Assembly (NCBI GenBank): GCA_014825775.1 | Contig: MVAQ01000219.1 | Location: forward strand, 1-36,036 | Reading direction: 5' to 3' | DNA: 36,036 bases | DNA from: Krasilnikovozyma curviuscula | Lineage: Eukaryota > Basidiomycota > Tremellomycetes > Cystofilobasidiales > Mrakiaceae | Shown here: one piece after another, positions 1 through 34,120 of the stretch | How positions within the stretch are numbered: position 1 is the first letter of the stretch | Layout: each line of letters starts with the position of its first letter | Notes under the pieces: model-generated | What the model was told of the DNA's origin: nothing | Databases searched by the model: none | What the model saw: the letters and a program-made list of their open reading frames with translations, nothing else | Made by a program: the position numbers and the translations under genes

Positions 1-3000
1 GACTCACAATGGAACTGTAGTCACTGTTTGCGCTGGATTCGCGGTCGCGACAGCTTGTGCTTGAGCAACAGTGAGAGGAATACTACAGTTAAATTAATTA
101 GAAGAACATATTTTTCGCTTTCCTAGAAAATATATTTCTCTTACAATTGCTCTCCCGTCAACAGGTAGGTGGGAGTGTCACGTTCCATGAGCAGATGCAT
201 ACCACGACGCGCAAAAAGGCGAGACCGAGGAACAGCGCCAGGTGTAGATGAAGTAACATTCGTGTAAATGTAAGGGTGCTCTTCAGTTACGCCTTGCGTA
301 TCAGATACCGCAGGACTAGAATATGAAAATAGTTAGCTCGACACTTTCTGGAGACAACGGGAATGGGCACACCATTGGATGTTGTACACTTCAGAATGAA
401 GGACGAATTAGCAAATGACTAACGCTGACAGAAAAACCATGTCACCACTTACAACTGACCCACTCTGGACCAGAAATGTAAAATGTTGAAGAACATAACT
501 GAAGATATGAGACTTCTGGGCAGTTGTCAATGCACTGTGATACAGAGTGTGAAGAATCAGCTCAACCGCTCGCTCACTGGAAAAGACGAGTTGGGAACTC
601 ACGTTCTGATACGTCTCTTCAACTAGTCGAGCGGCACATTGACCTGGTTTCCATGAAATAAGAGTTGAGTGGGTGTTTGATCCCTATATTTGGAGACAGT
701 ATACATACAGTCTGGCGGATATAAATCCAACGCACCACTGCTTACAATACAGATCCTGTTTTCGACTGTTTCTATTGCTCCGCAAGCAGCGTTGCAAGCG
801 CTCGAGTCGGTTGGCCAAGACAGATCCAGTTCATAAGGGACTACAAAGAAGGGATGTTTTGTAAACGGTAATGAGTAAATGGTAGAAGGACTCACTGTCC
901 AGAACTGGATAGAAGATGTGGAGAGTGATCAGTTTGTAACTCTATTCAAAAATATTAAAATGGCAAGCTACTTACGTTGTCCATTATAAGGGTATTCAAG
1001 ATCTATAAAAGAAGTCAGTATCAATATATTGTTCCATTAAGTACCATGCTTGACTCACTACCACACGGTGCTGTCACAGGCAAGTACAAGAACGCTGTCA
1101 GTGAGGAATTCGAAATTTTGAAAACTAATAAAGGCTATGCCAACTAACTAGCAGGACCAAAAGTTGGAGAGGCAGATGGTGCTGCACTTGATGAAACAGT
1201 CGTGCGAGCGACGACGCTGGATGCAACACTTTCGGAGGTAGCTGGCGTAGTCGAAGCACTGCTCTCAAGCACAGGTGTGGAAGTGACACTAATGGCGGAG
1301 ATAGGAAGCGAGCTTAAGACGACAGGTAGAGAGTTCGACAAAGAGCGAGTACTGGTCACAATGTAGGTGCTGGACGTAGGTGTTAGGTAGTTACTGGATA
1401 AGCTGGAGGATGAGGCCGCAGAAGATGAAGTATAGGAAAATAGTGAGCCTGAGAGATCACCTGGTCAAAGCATATGGCGAGTAGATATTCAGCCATAAGC
1501 GCAGCTGCGAAGTGGAGAGAAGTCACACTCACTACTGTCGGAAAGCGAGGTAGAAGTTGCGCTGGTGGATGAAGTCTGTCTGGCGGTAGTCGCTGAGGTG
1601 ACAGTACCTGTCCAGGAGTGAGAGATCAGTGCTCAACACAAAGTTTCAGGCCGCAAACTGGACACAAACTTACTAGTGGCGATAGGCAAGGTCACTAAAA
1701 TAACGTTTTATCAGTCAATTCTAAGTGGAGTGTTCTGAAGATGACAAGTCGCTTACAAGTCGCATTGTTGAAAGGTTTGCTTAACCATCCAAAATGGGAT
1801 AGATCAAGTCAATGTGGGATTAAAGATAGATGTAATATCCCACAAGAGCTCACCAGTGACTATCAAAGTCTGATTATATGTGTTTATTTGGTCAAAGATC
1901 AGATCATTCAAGTATCATGAAGCGATCAAGGGGTGGAACTTACTATCCACGAAGTCATTCAAAAAAAGTATTTCTTCGATGGGGATTTGAGATGACAGAC
2001 CTGTAGGATCGAAATACACATGTATGTAGAGGAGACTAGGACAGGTGTTGAGGCACTGAACAAGCAATGACGAGTCAGAACTTGTCAAAGGGTGCGCGCA
2101 GTCAATGGCTTACATTCTGCAAGTCAAAGTGCACTGGGTCTGTACAGTAGCCTAAATCAAACCAGAGGAGTATAATGAGTTCTAAAAGATTGCACCTGAA
2201 ATTTTGAAACTAACTTACAAGCGGTGTTATTTCCACAATATGATGGAAATGCAAACCCGCTGAAATAATCCACAGGCGAGTTTGAGGGTAGATCAGCTAC
2301 CATCTGATTGCATACAGTACACTAGATGAAAGCGAAAGAGATCAATATTTTGGTTTGGAAGGGCATAATAGTAAGCCATACGTTGATTGTCCATTCTAAT
2401 CCGTAATTGTCTGAAGATCTGTAGCTTCGATCTTGAAAAATTGTAACTAGAGATACACCTGAGTTCACCCATCGAAAAATGGAGAAGAGTTAATGTATAA
2501 TCAATGAAGCATCAAAGCAGGGCACGTCTTACCATTGGTGACTTGAACCTCTATTGCATGTCCATCAAGTTTATGTTCATCAAGTTATGGAGAGAATAAG
2601 TTTCTATTCCTGTGGTGCTTTAATAACGCGAAAAGGGACTGACCACTAGCCAGTGTGTGACTACTGCCAGGAGGGTAGCCTGATATTGAAAGAGATTGTT
2701 CAGCATACGGTATGGAATTAGTGAATGAAATAACACTCTCTTACCAGTCTGCCCAGGAGGGACAACTAGTATCGGGAGAATGCAGATGTGGAAGTAGTTA
2801 GATACGATCTGACCGCGAGTCAAACCCTGGAGACAACTCACGGCTGGCCCCATTGATTGGTCGACTGGATAATAAAGGAACGTCCTAGGTCAAAATCAAT
2901 GATAAATGAGAAATATAAAAAGCTTCTCACCATCGCTGGTTGTAATCTGGTAAGAACCCGGTGGGAGATGTCAGAAAGCAGCTACGATTACGCTAAGCTG

Positions 3001-6000
3001 CAAAGCACAATATCTGACTTACTATTCGTAAATACTGACAAATCTTGGGGTCCTTCACCCGGAATCTGGGATGACGGACCGGATGGATCGAAAGACACAT
3101 ATAAATAGAGTAAAGAAGAGCATGTATCGATGCACTTCACAACAGACCAAGAGTTCAGATAATGTTTTATGTAGCACAACTCCAACACTCACCCTTTGAA
3201 GATCATAGTGCAATGGCTCTGAGCAATAACCTGGGTTCAAGTAAACAAATTGATCAGCTCAACAGTCTCTTGTTTGTGAAGAAAAAAAAAAACACGAATA
3301 GCTTCAACCTACACGCTGTGTTGTTTCCGCAATAGGACGGAAACCCTGAGCCGCTAAAGTAATCAATTCTTGAATTCAAGGGTAGGTCGTTGACTACCTG
3401 GTCGCATACTGTACACTGGAGAACTGTATCAGAAAAGCTTTATCTTGATTTTCAGGAGCACAACTGACATTCGTCGTCCACTGTATTCCATAGTTGGTAG
3501 CTGAAGACGGTGTATAATCTTGATAGATCGTAACGAGAGAGACTCCTACAGTACAAGAGGGAGGGGGGAAGTCTCAGCGCAAGTCGGTCTGGAAACCTAG
3601 TGTACTAACCGTTCACGACTTGAGTCTCTAAGGAGTGGTAAGGGAACAGAAATAGAGGCAATTCAGGTTTTATCGCAGTTTGGCGTCTCCAAAATAAGCG
3701 AAAAGCTGACAGTTACTTACCATTGGCGTATGTGTGACTGCTAGCCGGTGGTAGGCCCACTGTACACACAAACAGAAAAAAGAAAAGAAGTGTGTAAAAA
3801 CGGGAGTACAGAATTAGCTCTTAGTGGGCGCACCATCTTCTCCTGGATAAGTCACTAAAAAAACGAGAGCAAGCTTAGTTGTAGCCTAGCAAGCAATCGG
3901 CATACTGGGTCTACCCAAACTCACGACTTGCGCCATTGATTGGCCGGCTGACAAACACGCAAAATATTGGTCAGAAAAAACAAGCGTGACAAGAACTCCG
4001 CGCTTCATAGCTTGACTCAAGCTATTCTTACCACCTGTTGCTGTAGGCTGTAGGTTATTGTTTTCGAACAAGTCAGCTCTGGATTTCTTTCAAGTCGCGT
4101 GTTTCAGCCATGAGGACGTACGATTCACAAAATATAACAAATCAGTTTCAGTAGACTCTCCCGCGATCTGAGATGCATCACTTGAGGGGTTAAAAGAAGT
4201 CTGTACGTAGAGTACCCCGGGACAATTGTCAAGGCACTGAGCGAGGTGGGCAGGTCAGAAATTATTATTTCACTCGAACAAATGAGGAAGCCTAACTGTT
4301 TGAACATTGTAGTGGAAAGGATCCGAGCAATAACCTAGAAGAACATTTCCGACACACCAAAAAAGTTAGTTGCGTAGGGGTCGAGTGTTCCGATGTTGTG
4401 CAAGGAACTAACAAGCTGTGTTGTTCCCACAGTAGGAGGGAAAACCTGCTCCATTGTAGTAGTCCACTCTTGAGTTCTGGGGAAGAACAGAAAATAGGGC
4501 ATCACACGCAGTGCACTGTACCAGAGAAATGAGTGGGTGCAAATAAAGTTGTCTCATTGAATGTACCTACATCCGCAGGAAATTCCAATCCGTAGCTTAT
4601 TGCCGCGCTAGCAGTATAGTCCTGAAAGATGGTCACCAGAGATACTCCTATAAAGAGATCAAAGCATCAGCTTGTTAATTACAACACCAACCAAGAAGCT
4701 TACCGTTGACGACTGTCGTCGCTGTGCAATCGGCGAGTGTAATGAGTTAGTACGAGAAAAAAAAGCATAGTAGGTATTACAGTACCTACCGTTTGCGGCT
4801 GGAGATGGGTTAGGGTCTGTTATACGTCAAACGAGAGAAGTTAGATCAACCAATCGCCGTGAAGTTGAATAAGACAATATTTACTGCTTTGTCCAGGGTA
4901 AAGTACTAACCGGCCAAGAGATTTAGTATTTTCGTAGCAAGATAAGTGTTGAACGGACTCACAGCTGACACCGTTGTACGGGCGACTGAAATGTCAGAGA
5001 GAAAGGAAGCAAGGTCAGCCACTGAGATAAGATCCATGTTTCGACGCGGAGATTGCTTTTTGAATTATCTTACCAGCGCGTCGTGTATGCTACATAATCA
5101 AGGAAACAAACATTAGCCCTCGTATTTAGAAAGATTCGGATCAGATGGACTTACAGCTGGAAAAGTAGAACATATCATTGTATGAATTCAAATACGGAAC
5201 CTGCGACGCCGGACCAGAGGGATTGAATAGGACCTGAAGGTAGGTGAGATTTGGGCAGTTGTTGATACACTAAATGAGAAGCAAGCTTTCAGGATGTGGG
5301 CTTATACGGAAAACTAGAATGGTTGACCTTTTGGATATCTTCATGGAGCGGGTCAGCGCAAAAGCCTAGAAGACATTTTTCAGAGTGAAAGATAGTATCA
5401 TCAGAGGCGGAGGTAGTATCCCTTACAAGCGGTGTTATTTCCACAGTAGGAGGGAAAGACAGTGCTTTGATAGTAATCGATTCTAGAGTTTAGAGGTAAA
5501 TCAGATACCAGTGGACCACAGACATCAGTACACTGATTTCCATAAACAAAAAATCTCTGAGCAAAGGAAAATGGGAAGTAAGAGAGTGAGTAATCTTTAC
5601 GTTACTGGGCCATTCCAAAGCATAACTTGTGGCAAAAGTAGGAGAATAGTCCTGGAAGATAGTGACAAGTGATACTCCTTGTGAATAGTACAGTTATACA
5701 TCAGATTCTGATACCAAAGAGAGAAAGAGTACACTCACCATCCACAACCGCGGTACCTGTGATAGGGAGATAGATGGGCGTGAGAGCTCTTTGGGACATC
5801 GTATTAGACCCAGACTCCCATTCATTAACTTACCGGTTGGAAGAGGGGAAGCACTTATTTCTATGTAGAGAAGATGTAATTATTGGTTCGTTTCGACGTC
5901 ATTCATCCTAAGCTGATAGACTCACCACTGCTAGTTTCCGAAGCGCTAATTGAGTAGGATGAATCTATTGAGAGTGATAAACTAAGATTGTCTACTACAT

Positions 6001-7736
6001 TTGCTTGATATCTTGACTAAGTAGATACTTACCACCAACGAACTTGTTGAAAGGGGAAAACCTTACACCGCTAGCACTAGGAGAGATCGCTGAACTTGAG
6101 AAAGTACTACTAGGGAAGTTCCCACCCAGTGATGCAGCAGAACCTGTTGTGGGGCTCGTGGTAATAAGCAAGATAGTTTCAAATGAACTCTTGGTTGGAT
6201 ATAGACTCACTGTCAGTGAGTGATGCTCTGACTGAAGGAGCATTGCTAATCTCGAAAGCAGAACTTGAAATCCCATTAGTAGCTTCTGATAAGAATTCTG
6301 TTAAAGAGGCAAATACCGAGCTGGAGGCAGCACCTGCGGCGCAAAGCGGTTATCATACGTACTCTCTGTCCTAGCGAAAGGGGTGTTTGAACATACTAGG
6401 CATCACTAAAGAGCTATCGCCAAATGCTGGGCTACTCGTAATAGAAGCTGTAGCTATAGAAGATGAGGGAAAGCTAGAGCTCGTGCCTGACAAAGGAGCA
6501 CCGTCGGTGAAAAACATCACTGTGAGATAGATGCTTTCACTGGAGACTCACTGCTGACGGTCGAGGAGCCATTACTAGAAAAACTACTGGTCGGAACAGA
6601 AGGAGATGATTCTGAATATGATGTCAGGATAGATTTGTTGACTGTTGAAATAAGGATGCCAATGGCTGAGATAAAACAGTGAAATTGACCACTGAAGACG
6701 TACCGTTAACGATTGAAGAGCTAGCACTGATCCTTTGGCTGCTAAAAAGAGTTACGCTAAAAGTTTCTGAAGAGGTCGGAATAGAGCTAGTACCTGTCGA
6801 CGCAGGGGCTGTATCTGTGATTGAGATACCATCTTAGAAACGACAAACAGAAGTAAATACTCACTAGGATTTATGGTCGAAGAGCTGTTAGTAAGAGCAC
6901 CACTGTTTACTGAAGAAGCGTCGAAGCTTGATGTTAATGATGATACCGTAGTGCTGAAACCTACAGGAAGAGCATTATTAGATGCTGGTGGACTACGAAA
7001 GAAGGACAACTGATGTCTTACTGCCGACGACAGAGGAACTATCACCTGGGATATCACTGCTCACTATAAAAGAACTAGTTTTTGAAGATAAATCTGAGCT
7101 AATGCTAGTACCTATAGAAGAAATGCGGTTAGTGGCTAAGATCTCACGACTGGTATCTTTGAAGACTGACTGCTGATGGCGAGAGAAGAGCTGCTGGTTA
7201 AGATAGCACTGCTTATAGCAGCGCTCAAAATCACCGTAGTTGAGGATGAAGTTAAAAAAGAGCTAGAAATTGAACCTAAAATATCATCGGCCCAAGGCTG
7301 ACCGAGATCAGCCATCTCCGTTGATTAGAAAATGTAACGTAGTAAAACCACGACTTACTGGTTGAAATTGAGGCCGTTGTGCTGGAGATGACAGAAGATT
7401 CAACAGAAGACGAAGAGCTGCTAGAAAAGTTGATGGCTACAGTTGGAGTAGCTGGAGCTGATTCCATGAAGCAACATGATTCGACGAATTGTTAATAATG
7501 AATTAAGGACGCTATCAAAGTTGACTCACTATTTGAGCTACTTGAAAGACTGATTGAATTGAGCTGACGTTGGTAAATTGAAACTGAGAGAGGGGAAGAA
7601 TGAGATGAGAGATTAAAATGCTCAGAAGGAAATATTGATCGGAGAGCAGTGTGATGGGGGACCCACATCTAGAAGCTATGGGTTGTACGTTTACCAAGAG
7701 TGCTAAAACTACCCAAGCAGAATTGGAAAGCTTCAT
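1..7736 (-). CDS. Large secreted Cys-rich modular surface protein (partial at left edge)
   Basis: Function unknown; probably cell-wall or extracellular. The start at 7736 opens a signal peptide (MKLSNSAWVVLALL, followed by an intron). Next come many short Ser/Thr-rich exons between about 7530 and 5800 (for example PATPTVAINFSSSSSSSVES), which look like an O-glycosylated stalk. Four tandem modules follow, each with exons of matching length and phase and a core of the form C-x2/3-C, ~24 residues, C-G-N-N-T-A-C-x-C-x-[DE]-P-x-H, then C-x3-C. A second Ser/Thr-rich linker lies at about 1600-1145 and a divergent fifth module at about 1000-453. The last visible exons (about 320-15) are less repetitive and end at a GTGAGT donor, so the gene runs off the window. 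The cysteine order resembles CFEM domains with a longer first loop (inference). A frame closes with TAG at 1144-1146, but a GTTAGT donor overlaps it. Two adjacent genes therefore remain possible, the split falling near 1144. Exact exons of the stalk are uncertain. Confidence 0.6.
453..1000 (-). repeat. Divergent fifth module of the surface protein
   Basis: The same order of elements is visible but diverged. An exon near 945-895 (YKLITLHIFYPVLD) corresponds to the VSLVTIFQD exon. It continues after an intron into PYELDLSWPTDSSACNAAC, matching the Trp-Pro and C-x3-C region. A 41-base exon near 645-605 (QCAARLVEETYQN) corresponds to the 38-base exon. The 82-base exon 534-453 starts CIDNCPEVSYLQ. 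The 77-base exon of the other modules is split by an extra intron here, and the YCGNNTAC motif is not recognisable. Confidence 0.5.
1144..1640 (-). other. Second Ser/Thr-rich linker exons
   Basis: Two or more exons encode Ser/Thr/Ala-rich sequence between modules 4 and 5, such as TVTSATTARQTSSTSATSTS (about 1605-1535) and SSASTTPATSESVASSVVAR (within 1360-1144). They resemble the stalk near the N terminus and were probably O-glycosylated spacers between module groups. The frame meets TAG at 1144-1146. A GTTAGT donor just upstream overlaps this stop and would splice into an exon near 1090-1060, so the linker may or may not be the C terminus of the gene. Confidence 0.5.
1944..2550 (-). repeat. 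Tandem exon module 4 of the surface protein
   Basis: 18-base microexon 2550-2533 (VQVTNG); 77-base exon 2458-2382 (VSLVTIFQDRSYRSSDNYGL); 103-base exon 2321-2219 (starts CTVCNQ, ends YCGNNTAC); 38-base exon (CYCTDPVHFDLQN); 112-base exon 2055-1944 (starts CLNTCPS). I could not find the 23-base RPxNGxS microexon after it, so the module seems to end early before the second Ser/Thr-rich linker. Offset from module 3 is about 1,090 bases. Confidence 0.7.
2842..3627 (-). repeat. Tandem exon module 3 of the surface protein
   Basis: 18-base microexon 3627-3610 (TQVVNG); 77-base exon 3545-3469 (VSLVTIYQDYTPSSATNYGI); 103-base exon 3415-3313 (starts CTVCDQ, ends YCGNNTAC); 38-base exon (CYCSEPLHYDLQR); 112-base exon 3134-3023 (starts CIDTCSS); 23-base microexon 2864-2842 (RPINGAS). 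The position of the 16-base exon is not clear here; a candidate before the donor near 2732 has a different length. Offset from module 2 is about 1,100 bases. Confidence 0.72.
3925..4721 (-). repeat. Tandem exon module 2 of the surface protein
   Basis: Same exon series as module 1: 18-base microexon 4721-4704 (TTVVNG); 77-base exon 4647-4571 (VSLVTIFQDYTASAAISYGL); 103-base exon 4515-4413 (starts CTAC, ends YCGNNTAC); 38-base exon (CYCSDPFHYNVQT); 115-base exon 4236-4122 (starts CLDNCPG); 16-base microexon 4047-4032; 23-base microexon 3947-3925 (RPINGAS). Offset from module 1 is about 1,030 bases. Confidence 0.75.
4963..5756 (-). repeat. Tandem exon module 1 of the surface protein
   Basis: Exons in coding order: 18-base microexon 5756-5739 (ends VVDG); 77-base exon 5677-5601 (VSLVTIFQDYSPTFATSYAL); 106-base exon 5532-5427 (starts CTDVC, ends YCGNNTAC); a 38-base exon near 5340 (CFCADPLHEDIQK); 115-base exon 5269-5155 (starts CINNCPN, ends SSC); 16-base microexon 5089-5074; 23-base microexon 4985-4963 (RPYNGVS). 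All have GT/AG boundaries and reading phase is preserved throughout. This is the only copy with a three-residue gap in its first cysteine pair (CTDVC); modules 2-4 have two. Confidence 0.75.
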
Positions 7737-8636: not shown

Positions 8637-10464
8637 TCACGCCAAGGCAGCACCATTTTCGAGGTTAGCCAACACGAATCTGTATCGGGCCTTGGAAGCG
8701 TGCATGTCGACGACGGCACTGTTGACATCCTTCATGTCGTACTTCTTGATCCAAGGGTGAATCTTTTGAGTTGCTGCAAGGTCGAGCATCTCGCGGATCA
8801 CCTTGGGAGTGCCGATGAGGGAGCCACAGACGTGCACGTTGGACATGACTGGTTTGCGGGAAGGCGAAAAAGGTCAGGAAGTGCGAAAGAGAAACAATAT
8901 AGAAAGAAAGAGGTAACGAACTGAGTTGGAAAGCTGAGAATCTTGGGAGATCTTCTTCTGGGGCTGTGAGGAAGAACAGAGCGTGGAGTCAGTCGGAGGT
9001 ACGCCTTTGAGACGAGCAGAGTAAGAAACGTACCACCAACGAGAACAAGGTGTCCACCTGGTCTCAAGAGCTTGAGGTATTCCGAGATGGGCATCGAGGC
9101 ATCGTCTTCGGTTTGAAAACCTCATCAGTTAATCGATCCAAAACCTGAAACGTCGAAAGAGAACTCACTAGTAGTCGACACAATCAAGTCCAAACTTCTC
9201 TCGTGGCCCTTAGCGAAGTCGGTAGAGCCGTGGGTCGCAATGAATCTCTCTGCGCCCATCTTCGCGGCGTCGGCCTTCTTCGACTCAGAGTGCGAGATGG
9301 CGGTGACGTTGGCGCCCATGGCTTTGGCGAAGAGGAGGCCGAAGTGGCCCAATCCACCTATATAAGCAAAAGTAGGAGGGGGATGAAAGGTTGGTGAGAA
9401 GCCAAGAGGGATTTGGAGAAAGGAGAAAGGGAAACGAACCGATACCAATGATACCGACGTCCTTTGCAGTCGTACCGGCGCCGTATTGCTTCAGAGGGGA
9501 GAAGACGGTGACACCACCTGATTCAGGATAAAGGGGAGCGCACCTTGTAAATAAACAGTAGAAGTTGTGCAAGCAGTAGACAGGTACATACCGCAAAGCA
9601 TTGGAGCAGCAAGAGCAGGATCAAGACCTGTTGGAATCTTCATAACAAAGTGGCCTGGCGCACTGTTTATGTTACCATAAAGCTATCAGATGACGAGAAA
9701 AAGATGAAGAGTAATGGAGAAACGAACCGGTTGTAGTTGGCGTATCCACCCCAGGACTTGTCACCTTTACGAGCTTCACGCTGGTAGATGCCGTTGTAGG
9801 TACCGACGTTTCCTGTCATCATTAGCAATGCCGAGTTAGTACAGAGCTTTGTTTCCAGTTGAACTAAAGGGGGGAATGCAGCGAACCATTGTCACAGTAA
9901 GTCTCCTTGTCGGCTTTGCAGTACTGGCACTCCAAACAGCTGTCAGACTGCGCTCCCACACCGGCGATATCTCCAACTTTGACATGGGTGACTTGAGATC
10001 CAACACGAACAACCTCACCGACGATTTCGTGGCCGACAACTAGACAAAAAAAAAGTTAAGTGCTTTAGTCAGTGAATATTCTCCGGAAAGAGTGGGAGTT
10101 TTTTTTTTTACCTTGAGGGTAGGTTTGGTTTGGGTCCCAACCTCCAGACATAGTATGCAAATCAGATGCACATACTCCACTGTACAAGATCTTGACTAAT
10201 GTGAATAAGTACTTGTCAGCGCGCGTGAACGAAACGTAATCAAAGCACCAAAAAAAAAGAAAAACGTACTGTCAACCATGTCCTCAGACCACGTTGGAGG
10301 GTTGTACTCGAAGAACTTCAGCTCTCCCTTGATTGAGTTCTTGTCGAAGGCTCCCCATCCCTATTCGCAGCAAAAAAAAAAAAAGTTGGTATCAATTGAA
10401 AGTCGACAAGAAAGTCAGAGGGAAGATATATACGTACTTCGAACTTGTAGTCGGTAGCAGACAT
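8637..10464 (-). CDS. Zinc-dependent alcohol dehydrogenase, NADP(H)-type (ADH6/7, cinnamyl-alcohol-dehydrogenase-like)
   Basis: Predicted cytosolic medium-chain dehydrogenase interconverting primary alcohols and aldehydes. It starts MSATDYKFE at 10464 and is split into about ten exons by short introns. The catalytic-zinc region is visible: GVCASDLH, then VVGHEIVGEVVRVG, and the Cys of PMLCGGVTVFSPLK. The structural-zinc loop has four cysteines (SCLECQYCKADKETYC). The Rossmann fold carries GLGHFGLLFAKAMGANV followed by ISHSESKK; a small residue and Lys/Arg after the second strand is typical of NADPH-using members. The C terminus (KARYRFVLANLENGAALA) matches the usual family ending. Length of about 350-360 residues is normal for the family. 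A TATA-like element lies about 105 bases upstream of the start, and the gene is divergent from the peptide transporter. Family assignment is firm; the natural substrate is not known. Confidence 0.9.
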
Positions 10465-31611: not shown

Positions 31612-34120
31612 ATGTCCATCACGCACGGATACAGATCTTCATCAGCCAGACCAGCTCAAGGCGTATTACCCTTTCAAACACTTCCCACCGATGGCGTAAG
31701 CAACTCGATATCAAAGTCGCCTTGGGTCTCCGACGATGCCGCTGCACCTTTCAGCTGCCATTGGAAGCCATGTCCCATGGTCTTTAACCACCAGTCCAGC
31801 CTCGTTAAGCATCTGACCTCTGGAGAATGTGTGTACGTCGTTTTTGATGAAAAGGACTATCCATTGCGATGTGTGGCAGGAAACGGGTGTCAAAAGAGGT
31901 TCAAGAGTCAAGTAGCTCTAAGGTGAGCCCCTGAATCTCTCTACGACTTATAGATGCTTACAGATGGATATTCTTTCATATATATTTGTGGATAAACAAG
32001 AGCTCATATTGCTAGCGAAGACCAACACCCAGACCTGAGCACCAGTGGCAATCGAAACCCAATCAGTGATTGCAACACCTTGACGCCGGTTTTATCTTTA
32101 TCTTCACGGTCCGCCTCAGTCTCGAATAGTCGTAGGTGTTTATCTCAGTTCAATGGTCGGTCTTTTGCAGACGGGCAGTCGATGAAGCTCTCACAGCTGG
32201 AATTTTCACGAGACATCCAACCCTGCGGGGCCCAACTGCAGCCTCTGTTTTCAGACTTTTACGATAACTCTTCAGGCAATCCCATCTCCTCTCTTTGTTC
32301 TACATACACCACCCAGCCTGTTAGAACTCTATCTCAAGAGAATCTATTACCCAAACCTGACCTGGAGACCGAAACACATACTACGTCACCATCACTATCA
32401 CTGTCGCATCAACCAACTGTTGTACCAAGTACCACAGCATGGGAAGAAATTTCATCTTCGGCGACATGTTCTCTGTCTGTACCAAGCCATTCACGGGCAA
32501 CTGCCGATACCTTGCCTATGTACTCGTACAGGTACTCGAACAGACTACCACCAGCTGAGCCTCTCACTTTGAATACTTTCGTGGTTTCTTGTTTTTGTGG
32601 TAGATCTGATAAAATCGGAGAACTCGTCCAAGTAAGTGTGCAGTAATTAATAATTTATTTGACCTCGGCTGATCGATACCTCCAATTTGCAGTGTGACAA
32701 GTGCTATGTTTGGCAACACTCTTACTGTAACAACTTCGAAGATGAGTATGGTCAACCAGTACCAGATCAACTGCAGCTGAAGGATATCGATCAATTCTTC
32801 TGCGAACTCTGTAATTACCGGAAGGTTGATGTCGACGGGAAGAGAGCTGGCTGGGATCAGTGGGAGCAGACATCCCATTCAGGGTCTCCAAAACAGAAAG
32901 AGAAGGTCATAAATTGCGCCAATGGTTGCATTGCAGCTACATCCAGCTCGACGAACTCGATGTTTGCAGACGCGTCGGAGGATGTGGATGAGATTGTCAG
33001 GCGTGGGACGAAGATGGGCAAGAAGAGGAAGCTCCCTCTTCGAGTTGGATCAGCACCCTTTGAGGAATCTTCATCCAAAAAGAAGAGGGCTTCTATCAAG
33101 TCACCGGCTACTGTAGAAATTACCAACATTACTACAAACCCCAAGCCCGTAAAGCACCCTCGCGTCACTCCTCTTGTATTGGAACCGACTCCCCTCATGC
33201 CCCTACTATCTCCAACTTCAATTCAAGGGTTGACACACATGTCACCTCAGATATTCCAGCCACCACTGTCGGTTGCACAGCAACTATCTCAGCCTCCAAG
33301 AGCGAAGGAGGGGCTTTCGATGGATTCGATTCATTCTACAATCATCCCTGAAACTCCTCTTTCACTCATCGCATCATCAACTTCCTCTTCAAAAGAACCG
33401 GAAGCACCTTTTTCTGTATTTCAATCTTCGACATCCTCTGAAAGGGCCCTATCACCAGCAACCTTGGCGTCCAAAGCTGGTCCAAGTTCACAATGGACCT
33501 CAATCAAGTCACCATCCCTCTCGCATATAAAACCATTTTTGGCCCGTCCAGCAGTTATTCTACCTCAGTTGAACTCGGCGGGAGCAATTCCAACAGGTGA
33601 TGGAGCCAGGGCGGTTGTAGGTGAAGACTCACTCCCAGCTGCAATGGACGTCCTGGGAACACCCGAGTCTCGATTTGAGGACGAAGATGAAGAGGTAGAG
33701 AATCAGGTTCAACTCGCACTTTCACCTTCTACTGAACCTGAAGAAGCAGCCCAGATGCATGTTCAATCACCACCACGACTACCAACCTCCTTGCAATCAC
33801 AACAGAATCAAGAAGCTGGTGCTTGTGATGGCTCAAATGACGATGTCGTGTTTGTGTTGGAGAACAACAAGAAAAAAACCACTCGCCGCCATCAGTCTCA
33901 GATCCAAGAAGAAACCAGGGTCAAGGCTGAGGAGGAGGACGATGTGCCATTACTGAATGCGAGTGGGCGCCAGTTGGGTCTGCCGACTGGACCCCGTGTG
34001 ATTGATCGTGACGAAGAGGATGATGTTCCTATCGTTAGGAGAAGCTGTAGAAATAACAGACCTATAGAAAGGAATCCCCGTGGTTATTATCTGCCACAGC
34101 TAGGCCGGTCTAGGAATTGA
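31612..34120 (+). CDS. C2H2-like and PHD zinc-finger nuclear protein
   Basis: Probable chromatin or transcription regulator. Three exons (31612-31922, 32016-32631, 32693-34120) join in phase to give 784 residues. The N-terminal part has a C2H2-type finger (FSCHWKPCPMVFNHQSSLVK, then HLTSGEC, with Cys in place of the last His) and a second, degenerate one (CVAGNGCQKRFKSQVALR). A Ser/Thr-rich linker follows. A PHD finger spans the exon 2/3 junction: CFCGRSDKIGELVQ, then CDKCYVWQHSYC, and FFCELC after ~22 residues; this matches C4HC3 spacing and resembles the PHD of Set3/Cti6-type proteins that read histone H3 tails. Basic nuclear-localisation-like patches follow (GKKRKLPLR, SSKKKR). The rest is a long Pro/Ser-rich and acidic tail with a conserved-looking basic end (RRSCRNNRPIERNPRGYY). 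The aromatic Trp of CYVWQH is retained. Confidence 0.85.

What the first reader, a model, noticed from the sequence alone, without database searches (positions are those of the whole stretch)
1944..5756. Tandem copying of a whole multi-exon module encoding a CFEM-like Cys-rich domain
Four successive modules repeat with near-constant offsets (first Cys exon starts at 5532, 4515, 3415 and 2321). Exon lengths are nearly identical across copies: 77 bases in all four; 106/103/103/103; 38; 115/115/112/112. Introns have diverged much more than exons. The spliced cysteine order, C-x2/3-C ... C-x5-C-x-C-x10-C-x3-C, recalls CFEM domains, which bind haem or act in adhesion, but with a much longer first loop and Asn instead of the usual Asp before the C-x-C. 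This may be an undescribed repeated surface domain.
Basis: partly seen in the sequence, partly recalled or inferred. Interest (0 to 1): 0.8.

Follow-up and report, generated by a model that had tools for sequence, protein, structure and literature searches.

The report
Intron-shattered fungal cysteine-module surface gene
A yeast-like fungus carries a gene chopped into at least 59 mostly short exons that appears to encode a cell-surface protein with four tandem copies, plus one more diverged copy, of an undescribed disulfide-type domain that resembles the known CFEM domain in cysteine order but could not be shown to be one.

Summary
On the minus strand, four modules start their first Cys exon at exactly 5532, 4515, 3415 and 2321, with the stated exon lengths. 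The modelled gene has 59 exons from ATG 7736 to the contig end: signal-like start, Ser-rich stalk, four modules, second stalk, divergent fifth module. Modules are constrained (pN 0.23-0.30, pS 0.81-0.90); intron similarity is at noise level. At least five paralogs share the fifth-module domain. In 16 of 17 family modules, introns at the fourth and sixth cysteines keep position and phase.

CFEM membership is not supported. No window module matches PF05730; three of eight motif elements are met; one weak paralog match is reproduced by shuffles keeping only the cysteines. A remote CFEM fold is not excluded, because no structure prediction was run.

Most likely a GPI-anchored wall glycoprotein displaying tandem disulfide domains. 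Function is inferred. Organism unnamed; Cystofilobasidiales-like by inference.

The parts
7667..7736 (-). Exon 1: start ATG and signal-peptide-like N terminus (by eye)
   Evidence: model; signal-like starts also in the C371, C19 and C97 models, not in the C27 and C380 models
5926..7583 (-). Ser/Thr-rich stalk encoded by 11 exons, all phase 1-1 (54,99,105,90,96,111,90,90,123,111,39 nt)
   Evidence: nine of the 11 exon peptides were compared and resemble each other more than composition explains (0 of 200 shuffles reach it)
5739..5860 (-). Two microexons (27 and 18 nt) before module 1, like the pairs between modules
4885..5677 (-). Module 1: exons 5677-5601 (77), 5532-5427 (106), 5365-5328 (38), 5269-5155 (115), 5089-5074 (16), 4985-4963 (23), 4905-4885 (21)
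4704..4816 (-). Linker microexons 27 and 18 nt
3834..4647 (-). Module 2: exons 4647-4571 (77), 4515-4413 (103), 4334-4297 (38), 4236-4122 (115), 4047-4032 (16), 3947-3925 (23), 3854-3834 (21)
3610..3759 (-). Linker exons 39 and 18 nt
2745..3545 (-). Module 3: exons 3545-3469 (77), 3415-3313 (103), 3230-3193 (38), 3134-3023 (112), 2946-2931 (16), 2864-2842 (23), 2765-2745 (21)
2533..2679 (-). Linker exons 36 and 18 nt
1674..2458 (-). Module 4: exons 2458-2382 (77), 2321-2219 (103), 2151-2114 (38), 2055-1944 (112), 1869-1854 (16), 1779-1757 (23), 1694-1674 (21)
1149..1607 (-). Second Ser/Thr stalk, exons 75 and 312 nt
896..1070 (-). Microexons 12, 27 and 9 nt leading into the fifth module; the same 12-27-9 run occurs in 5 of 6 family genes
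   Evidence: C97 differs: 24/27/30
373..840 (-). Divergent fifth module (M5), C-x3-C-x10-C-x13-C-x-C-x11-C-x3-C-x8-C-x18-C: exons 840-709 (132), 643-603 (41), 534-453 (82), 388-373 (16); the last Cys is completed in the next exon
   Evidence: homologous to the N-type modules by profile (97%; 0 of 60 shuffles) and by intron positions; the first exon boundary was set by hand and is borne out by the fused C371 exon
8..315 (-). C-terminal part up to the contig end (exons 315-145 and 82-8); the gene is cut by the contig edge, the rest probably on contig C12

Best explanation
The gene encodes a large secreted, probably GPI-anchored, wall-associated surface glycoprotein. Shown by sequence: signal-like start, long Ser/Thr stalks, four tandem eight-cysteine modules, a C-terminal Cys domain that is itself a diverged fifth module, and paralogs that end in GPI-type hydrophobic tails. 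Inferred: the stalks are O-glycosylated and hold the modules away from the wall; each module folds on its own, probably with four disulfides; and the array acts as a multivalent ligand-binding or adhesive head. Because each copy is bounded by phase-1 introns, copies could be added in frame by unequal recombination inside introns. The duplications are old: introns and synonymous sites are saturated, while splice positions and protein sequence are kept. The module has a CFEM-like cysteine skeleton but is not shown to be a CFEM domain; loss of the haem-ligand Asp argues against CFEM-type haem binding.
For: Exact four-fold exon architecture. pN 0.23-0.30 against pS 0.81-0.90 in 6 of 6 module pairs, and dN/dS 0.045 (dS 2.8, so rough) between window M5 and the C371 copy. 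Intron positions relative to Cys: all five sites in 8 of 9 N-type modules, and the C4 and C6 sites in 16 of 17 modules. Exon fusions in paralogs sum exactly to separate exons elsewhere (255 = 132+41+82 in C371; 272 = 82+16+174 in C27), which supports the modelled splice points including a 16-nt exon. Hydrophobic GPI-type tails in 5 of 5 paralog models, and a headless tail of this kind at the start of contig C12.
Against: No transcript, proteomic or structural data. Adhesion is an analogy from domain layout. The gene's own C terminus is not on this contig and the C12 link is inferred. Two of five paralog models (C27, C380) lack a signal-like start. The gene finder used for paralogs was trained on the window gene, and the window gene, C371 m2, C97 m1/m2 and C369 were completed by hand with the pattern in mind, so part of the agreement is circular; C371 m1 and M5, C19, C27, C380, C90 and C97 M5 exons were taken as the finder gave them. 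The kinship of the two single-module genes is not supported by profile comparison (1.8% with N-type, 15% with M5), only by intron sites.
Confidence: 0.6

Rival explanations
1. A diverged tandem CFEM protein (Csa1-like): modules fold as CFEM helical baskets and bind haem or another small ligand, as proposed for ferric-reductase N-termini with Asn in place of Asp. (Not exclusive with the best explanation.)
For: Same order of C1-C7 with C-x-C, x10/11 and x3 spacing; eight Cys; loop C2-C3 falls within 8-12 in 8 of 17 family modules and Asp stands at the right place in 2 of 17; whole-family profile vs CFEM 14.0 against 9.35 +/- 2.03 for Cys-fixed shuffles, 1 of 60 reaching it. Precedent: C. albicans FRE N-termini keep CFEM cysteines with low sequence homology (six of eight in 10 of 12 proteins), Asp replaced by Asn in six (PMC9635878, section 12).
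Against: 0 of 5 window modules hit PF05730. The C97 M5 core hit (E 0.12; E 0.077 for one of 17 cores) is matched by 2 of 10 Cys-fixed shuffles, one better and one slightly worse, and vanishes with the full-length domain. N-type profile alone: 19 of 60 shuffles reach the score, C-type alone: 12 of 60. C7-C8 spacing and P-x-C1 met in 0 of 17. Window modules carry an N-x-T sequon (NNT) next to the place of the haem-ligand Asp (sequence, 4 of 4).
Confidence: 0.22
2. A structural cell-wall glycoprotein: the modules are disulfide spacers that cross-link or stiffen the wall, without specific ligand.
For: Long stalks, GPI-type family tails, tandem similar modules (50-61% identity), and different N-terminal domains on the same C-terminal domain in paralogs C27 and C380.
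Against: Conserved non-Cys segments such as FPSYCGNNTAC and strong constraint suggest more than spacing; no direct evidence either way.
Confidence: 0.2
3. Gene-prediction illusion: the repeats are real but some microexons are not used, or the locus is a decaying gene.
For: No RNA evidence; 22 of 59 exons are 27 nt or shorter; the model was completed by hand, and GT-AG ends were required, so 58 of 58 GT-AG introns is no test.
Against: No in-frame stop in 1266 codons; pN far below pS; the 12-27-9 run recurs in 5 of 6 genes, and fused exons in paralogs sum to the modelled lengths.
Confidence: 0.05

Closest known systems
CFEM domain (PF05730); Csa2/Rbt5/Pga7 and tandem-CFEM Csa1 of Candida albicans
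   Same: Extracellular, eight cysteines, C-x-C then x10/11 then C-x3-C, GPI-type anchoring in the family, tandem copies (Csa1 tandem CFEM domains: PMC9635878 passages)
   Different: No profile match for window modules; C2-C3 loop 24 (motif 8-12), C7-C8 37-38 (motif 15-16), no P-x-C1, Asn instead of Asp; extra N-terminal segment before C1
Ferric reductase N-terminal CFEM-like domains (FRE)
   Same: Precedent for CFEM-like domains with low sequence homology to CFEM, most Cys kept and Asn for Asp in six cases (PMC9635878 section 12)
   Different: No ferric reductase membrane part seen in the window gene or the modelled paralogs (by eye; Pfam was run on the window protein, and on paralog pieces); no structure available here for the module
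Schistosome micro-exon genes (MEGs)
   Same: Secreted-type protein and many small symmetrical exons (MEG definition from PMC4350168 passages): here 31 of 59 exons are symmetric, 14 of these 36 nt or shorter
   Different: Fungal, introns of 50-93 nt, has Cys modules, most of the coding sequence is not in microexons, no evidence of alternative splicing
Intron-rich Cystofilobasidiales genes (Phaffia, Mrakia)
   Same: Window GC 47.0% against 47.1-47.3% for Phaffia, and very high intron numbers (7.65 introns per gene; PMC5103461 passages and section 6 part 1)
   Different: 58 introns in 3.8 kb of coding sequence, 15.3 per kb, is far above that average; mean intron 68 nt against 110-112 nt in Phaffia; organism identity is inferred, not shown

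Membership tests
CFEM (PF05730) | Match to the Pfam profile at or near the curated cut-off (22 bits) | tested here: not met
   0 of 5 window modules and none for the whole window protein at E<=10; the two CFEM controls score 57.0 and 56.4 bits
CFEM (PF05730) | C-x-C, then x9-14, C, x3-4, C | tested here: met
   4 of 4 window modules M1-M4 and M5; of 17 family modules 17, 17 and 15 meet the three elements
CFEM (PF05730) | P-x-C1-[AG]-x2-C2 and C2-x8-12-C3 | tested here: not met
   0 of 17 for P-x-C1 and for C1-[AG]-x2-C2; C2-C3 in 0 of 4 window modules M1-M4, 8 of 17 in the family
CFEM (PF05730) | Asp before C-x-C (haem-iron ligand) | tested here: not met
   Asn in 4 of 4 window modules M1-M4; Asp at that place in 2 of 17
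CFEM (PF05730) | C7-x15-16-C8 | tested here: not met
   37-38 residues in window M1-M4; 0 of 17
CFEM (PF05730) | Sequence similarity beyond Cys spacing | tested here: inconclusive
   Whole family: 1 of 60 Cys-fixed shuffles reach the score; N-type 19 of 60; C-type 12 of 60. Pfam hit of the C97 M5 core is matched by 2 of 10 shuffles. Only two CFEM sequences were used, one of them synthetic
CFEM (PF05730) | Helical-basket fold and its disulfide pairing | not testable with these tools
Micro-exon gene (MEG-like) | Most of the coding region in very small symmetrical exons | tested here: not met
   31 of 59 exons are symmetric, but only 14 of them are 36 nt or shorter
Micro-exon gene (MEG-like) | Alternative splicing of the microexons | not testable with these tools
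   No RNA data
GPI-anchored fungal surface protein | Signal peptide and Ser/Thr-rich stalk | tested here: inconclusive
   Stalk: 125 Ser and 33 Thr in the first 340 residues of the model. Signal peptide judged by eye; no signal-peptide program was run
GPI-anchored fungal surface protein | C-terminal GPI signal | tested here: inconclusive
   Seen by eye in 5 of 5 paralog models and in the headless C12 tail; the window gene's own end is off the contig

The most novel reading that the evidence does not exclude
An undescribed fungal extracellular domain family whose introns are fixed at its cysteine codons, in genes built largely from symmetric phase-1 exons and microexons, so that stalks, linkers and whole modules can be skipped or duplicated without loss of frame: a fungal counterpart of schistosome micro-exon genes that makes variable surface proteins by splicing and by intron recombination.
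Probability: 0.13. Interest if true: 0.8.

Novelty: new variant of a known kind. Interest (0 to 1): 0.55.

Why it matters
It gives a disulfide-type domain family without a Pfam name, with 15 well-linked modules (17 with two uncertain ones) in one genome, enough to express and solve. It also gives an unusually clean record of domain duplication in which introns have lost detectable sequence similarity but not their positions. Fungi are not the usual place to look for phase-1 modular genes (my recollection), and a fungal gene modelled with 22 exons of 27 nt or less is a direct test case for how very short exons are recognised. If the module proves to have the CFEM fold, it would widen that fold well beyond its present motif.

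Tried and rejected
Protein database searches with the window protein, the C371 paralog and a generic CFEM query all returned nothing; since even the CFEM query found nothing, the first two negatives say nothing about novelty. PDB profile search with the five window modules: none. NCBIfam, two proteins: none. Rfam on the window: none. DUF7247, Evf and CGL160_C matches are far below cut-off and were discarded. A generic CFEM query and PF05730 found nothing in the window's own genome; because genes there are split into short exons, this does not show that CFEM genes are absent. Haem binding as the leading function was dropped for lack of the Asp and for the adjacent sequon. The idea that introns still share homology was tested and dropped. 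The profile link of the two single-module genes to the rest was tested and is weak (1.8% and 15%). The gene finder gave an unusable model for the neighbouring dehydrogenase gene and for C369; it is tuned to this family, and its recovery of 56 of 59 exons is a test on its own training gene. Baseline intron density: in the same genome eight chaperonin-family genes match in 4-8 pieces each over a 490-position profile, and two further gene-like clusters on C243 in 3 and 2 (53 matches in all); this is a lower bound, well below 15.3 introns per kb. A bacterial-type promoter scan is irrelevant for a fungus; tandem-repeat search found only a 29-base array and a terminal poly-T. Besides CFEM, two unrelated families were hit by the shuffled controls at E 0.17 and 2.7, as expected by chance. 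Ten paper searches showed no description of this domain or gene in the rows listed, but for seven of them I saw only the top rows (for example 8 of 435, 10 of 740); the library lacks most subscription journals.
Full report
WHAT WAS CHECKED. All stated starts and exon lengths are right, and a repeat search without any gene model shows the same four-copy families with spacings of about 1.0-1.1 kb.

GENE MODEL. A dynamic-programming gene finder with hand-set scores, followed by hand curation, gives 59 exons, 3800 coding bases and 1266 codons without a stop, from ATG 7736 to position 8, where the gene is cut by the contig edge. The 58 introns are 50-93 nt, mean 68 (GT-AG by construction); 43 are in phase 1; the median exon is 41 nt; 22 exons are 27 nt or shorter; there are 15.3 introns per kb of coding sequence. 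As a rough baseline, eight chaperonin-family genes of the same genome match in 4-8 pieces each over a 490-position profile, and two more clusters in 3 and 2. The layout is: signal-like N terminus; Ser-rich stalk of 11 symmetric phase-1 exons; four modules; second stalk; microexons 12-27-9; a fifth Cys domain (M5); C-terminal part. Nine stalk exon peptides resemble one another beyond composition (0 of 200 shuffles), so the stalk probably also grew by exon duplication. Of the 43 codons split by phase-1 introns in the whole gene, 7 are AGT Ser, so intron gain at Ser codons is an alternative.

THE MODULE. Each of the four copies reads, after splicing, 26 residues ending in a YGLEWP-like stretch, then C1-x2/3-C2-x24-C3-x5-C4-x-C5-x10-C6-x3-C7-x37/38-C8. 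Module pairs are 50-61% identical in protein, with pN 0.23-0.30 and pS 0.81-0.90, too saturated for dS. Corresponding introns are no more alike than non-corresponding ones (0.35-0.45 against 0.33-0.42). The duplications are old and the coding part is under strong constraint.

THE FAMILY. Module 2 finds only this gene in the genome (12 of 12 matches), but the M5 query finds paralogs on C371, C27, C19 and C380 and a weak match on C90, and a C371 module adds C97. Gene models show: C371 with two N-type modules and M5; C97 with two and M5; C19 with one and M5; C27 and C380 with other N-terminal domains and M5. All five models end in a hydrophobic GPI-type tail (by eye); C371, C19 and C97 start with a signal-like stretch, C27 and C380 as modelled do not. 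Two smaller genes, on C90 and C369 (found with the C90 protein; exons read by hand), hold one module of similar Cys order, each followed by a likely transmembrane stretch (by eye). Profile comparison does not support their kinship (1.8% with N-type, 15% with M5); it rests on shared intron sites. A tail without a head begins contig C12 and is probably the missing end of the window gene.

INTRON POSITIONS. Relative to the cysteines, introns sit at C1 phase 0, C4 phase 1, C6 phase 0, five codons before the last Cys phase 1, and the last Cys phase 2. Eight of nine N-type modules have all five; C19 m1 has four. Of all 17 modules: C1 site 11, C4 site 16, C6 site 16, last-Cys-minus-5 site 13, last-Cys site 14. 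The C1 intron is absent from 6 of 6 M5 domains; the two single-module genes were not resolved beyond the C6 site. C27 and C371 have fused exons whose lengths sum exactly to separate exons elsewhere, which supports the modelled splice sites, including a 16-nt exon. Random placement would give the four M5/N-type coincidences with probability about 1.5e-8 under a simple model. Together with the profile match of N-type to M5 (97%, score 61.6 against 14.5 +/- 3.6 for Cys-fixed shuffles, 0 of 60) this makes M5 a diverged fifth module. The window gene and C371 m2, C97 m1/m2 and C369 were completed by hand and are partly circular. That four of five intron sites fall in or just before a Cys codon has a chance of about 1e-4 under a uniform model, a test made after the fact.

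IS IT CFEM? The published motif is PxC[A/G]x2Cx8-12Cx1-3[x/T]Dx2-5CxCx9-14Cx3-4Cx15-16 (PMC4530338, introduction shown with the outline; passages). Window modules M1-M4 meet three of the eight elements I tested. Pfam gives no CFEM match for any window module and one among 17 family cores, at E 0.077 (the member is not named there, I take it to be C97 M5). A 53-residue cut of C97 M5 gives E 0.12, the full 112-residue domain nothing, and the two controls 57.0 and 56.4 bits. Shuffling that cut with Cys fixed gives CFEM hits of E 0.044 and 0.17 in 2 of 10: the weak signal is cysteine spacing. Profile comparison with two CFEM sequences (one from 4Y7S as shown, one generic) is weak; the whole family lies above all but 1 of 60 Cys-fixed shuffles, the N-type group does not (19 of 60 reach it) nor the C-type group (12 of 60). 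Ferric-reductase N-termini are a precedent for CFEM-like folds with little sequence identity and Asn for Asp (PMC9635878 section 12). So it may work like a CFEM protein, but it is not filed as one.

FUNCTION. Most likely a GPI-anchored wall glycoprotein presenting tandem disulfide modules on a stalk, for adhesion or ligand binding. Shown: layout, constraint, family tails. Inferred: glycosylation, anchoring of this copy, disulfides, adhesion. The Asn-Asn-Thr sequon in 4 of 4 window modules next to the haem-ligand position argues against CFEM-type haem binding (inference).

ORGANISM. Window GC 47.0% and extreme intron density fit Cystofilobasidiales, which have 7.65 introns per gene (PMC5103461 passages and section 6 part 1); against it, introns here are shorter than Phaffia's 110-112 nt. 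This is inference; no marker gene was compared.

NOVELTY. No Pfam family above cut-off and no NCBIfam family covers the module, and ten paper searches listed no description (most seen only in their top rows), but wider distribution among fungi could not be tested. The kind, a tandem Cys-rich GPI-type surface protein, is known; the module and the microexon architecture look new. Microexons in fungi are called little characterised in PMC11121469 (passages).

Noticed in passing
L031 (C27) gene 7665-3986 minus; L033 (C380) gene 2918-7335 plus: Two paralogs carry a different N-terminal domain (once in C27, about three tandem copies in C380, by eye) on the same C-terminal Cys domain and tail; it recalls KNH-type wall domains from memory, but Pfam gives no match.
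   Followed up: partly
L034 (C90:10000-19990) about 4038-4900 plus: Apparently decayed remnant of the family's C-terminal part and tail: short matched stretches, one with an internal stop, and no M5 core found beside them. Described only.
   Followed up: no
L075 (C12:1-1300): A GPI-type Val/Thr-rich tail without its head begins at the first bases of contig C12; probably the missing 3' end of the window gene.
   Followed up: partly
L034 2589-3353 plus; L063 about 4724-3550 minus: Two small genes with a single module of similar Cys order and the same C1, C4 and C6 intron sites, each followed by a likely transmembrane stretch read by eye; profile support for kinship is weak.
   Followed up: partly
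window 373-5677 and paralog modules: Four of the five conserved module intron sites fall within or directly before a cysteine codon (C1, C4, C6, last Cys).
   Followed up: partly
L032, L030, L075 tails: The C-terminal tails are long Val/Thr-rich arrays of degenerate short repeats (by eye), possibly wall-spanning.
   Followed up: no
window about 8637-9490 minus: Zinc-type alcohol dehydrogenase gene upstream of the finding's gene (PF00107 in the frame 9125-9490; the end at 8637 read by eye).
   Followed up: no
window 32663-34120 plus: Open frame with a sub-threshold PHD-finger match (20.4 bits against a cut-off of 24).
   Followed up: no
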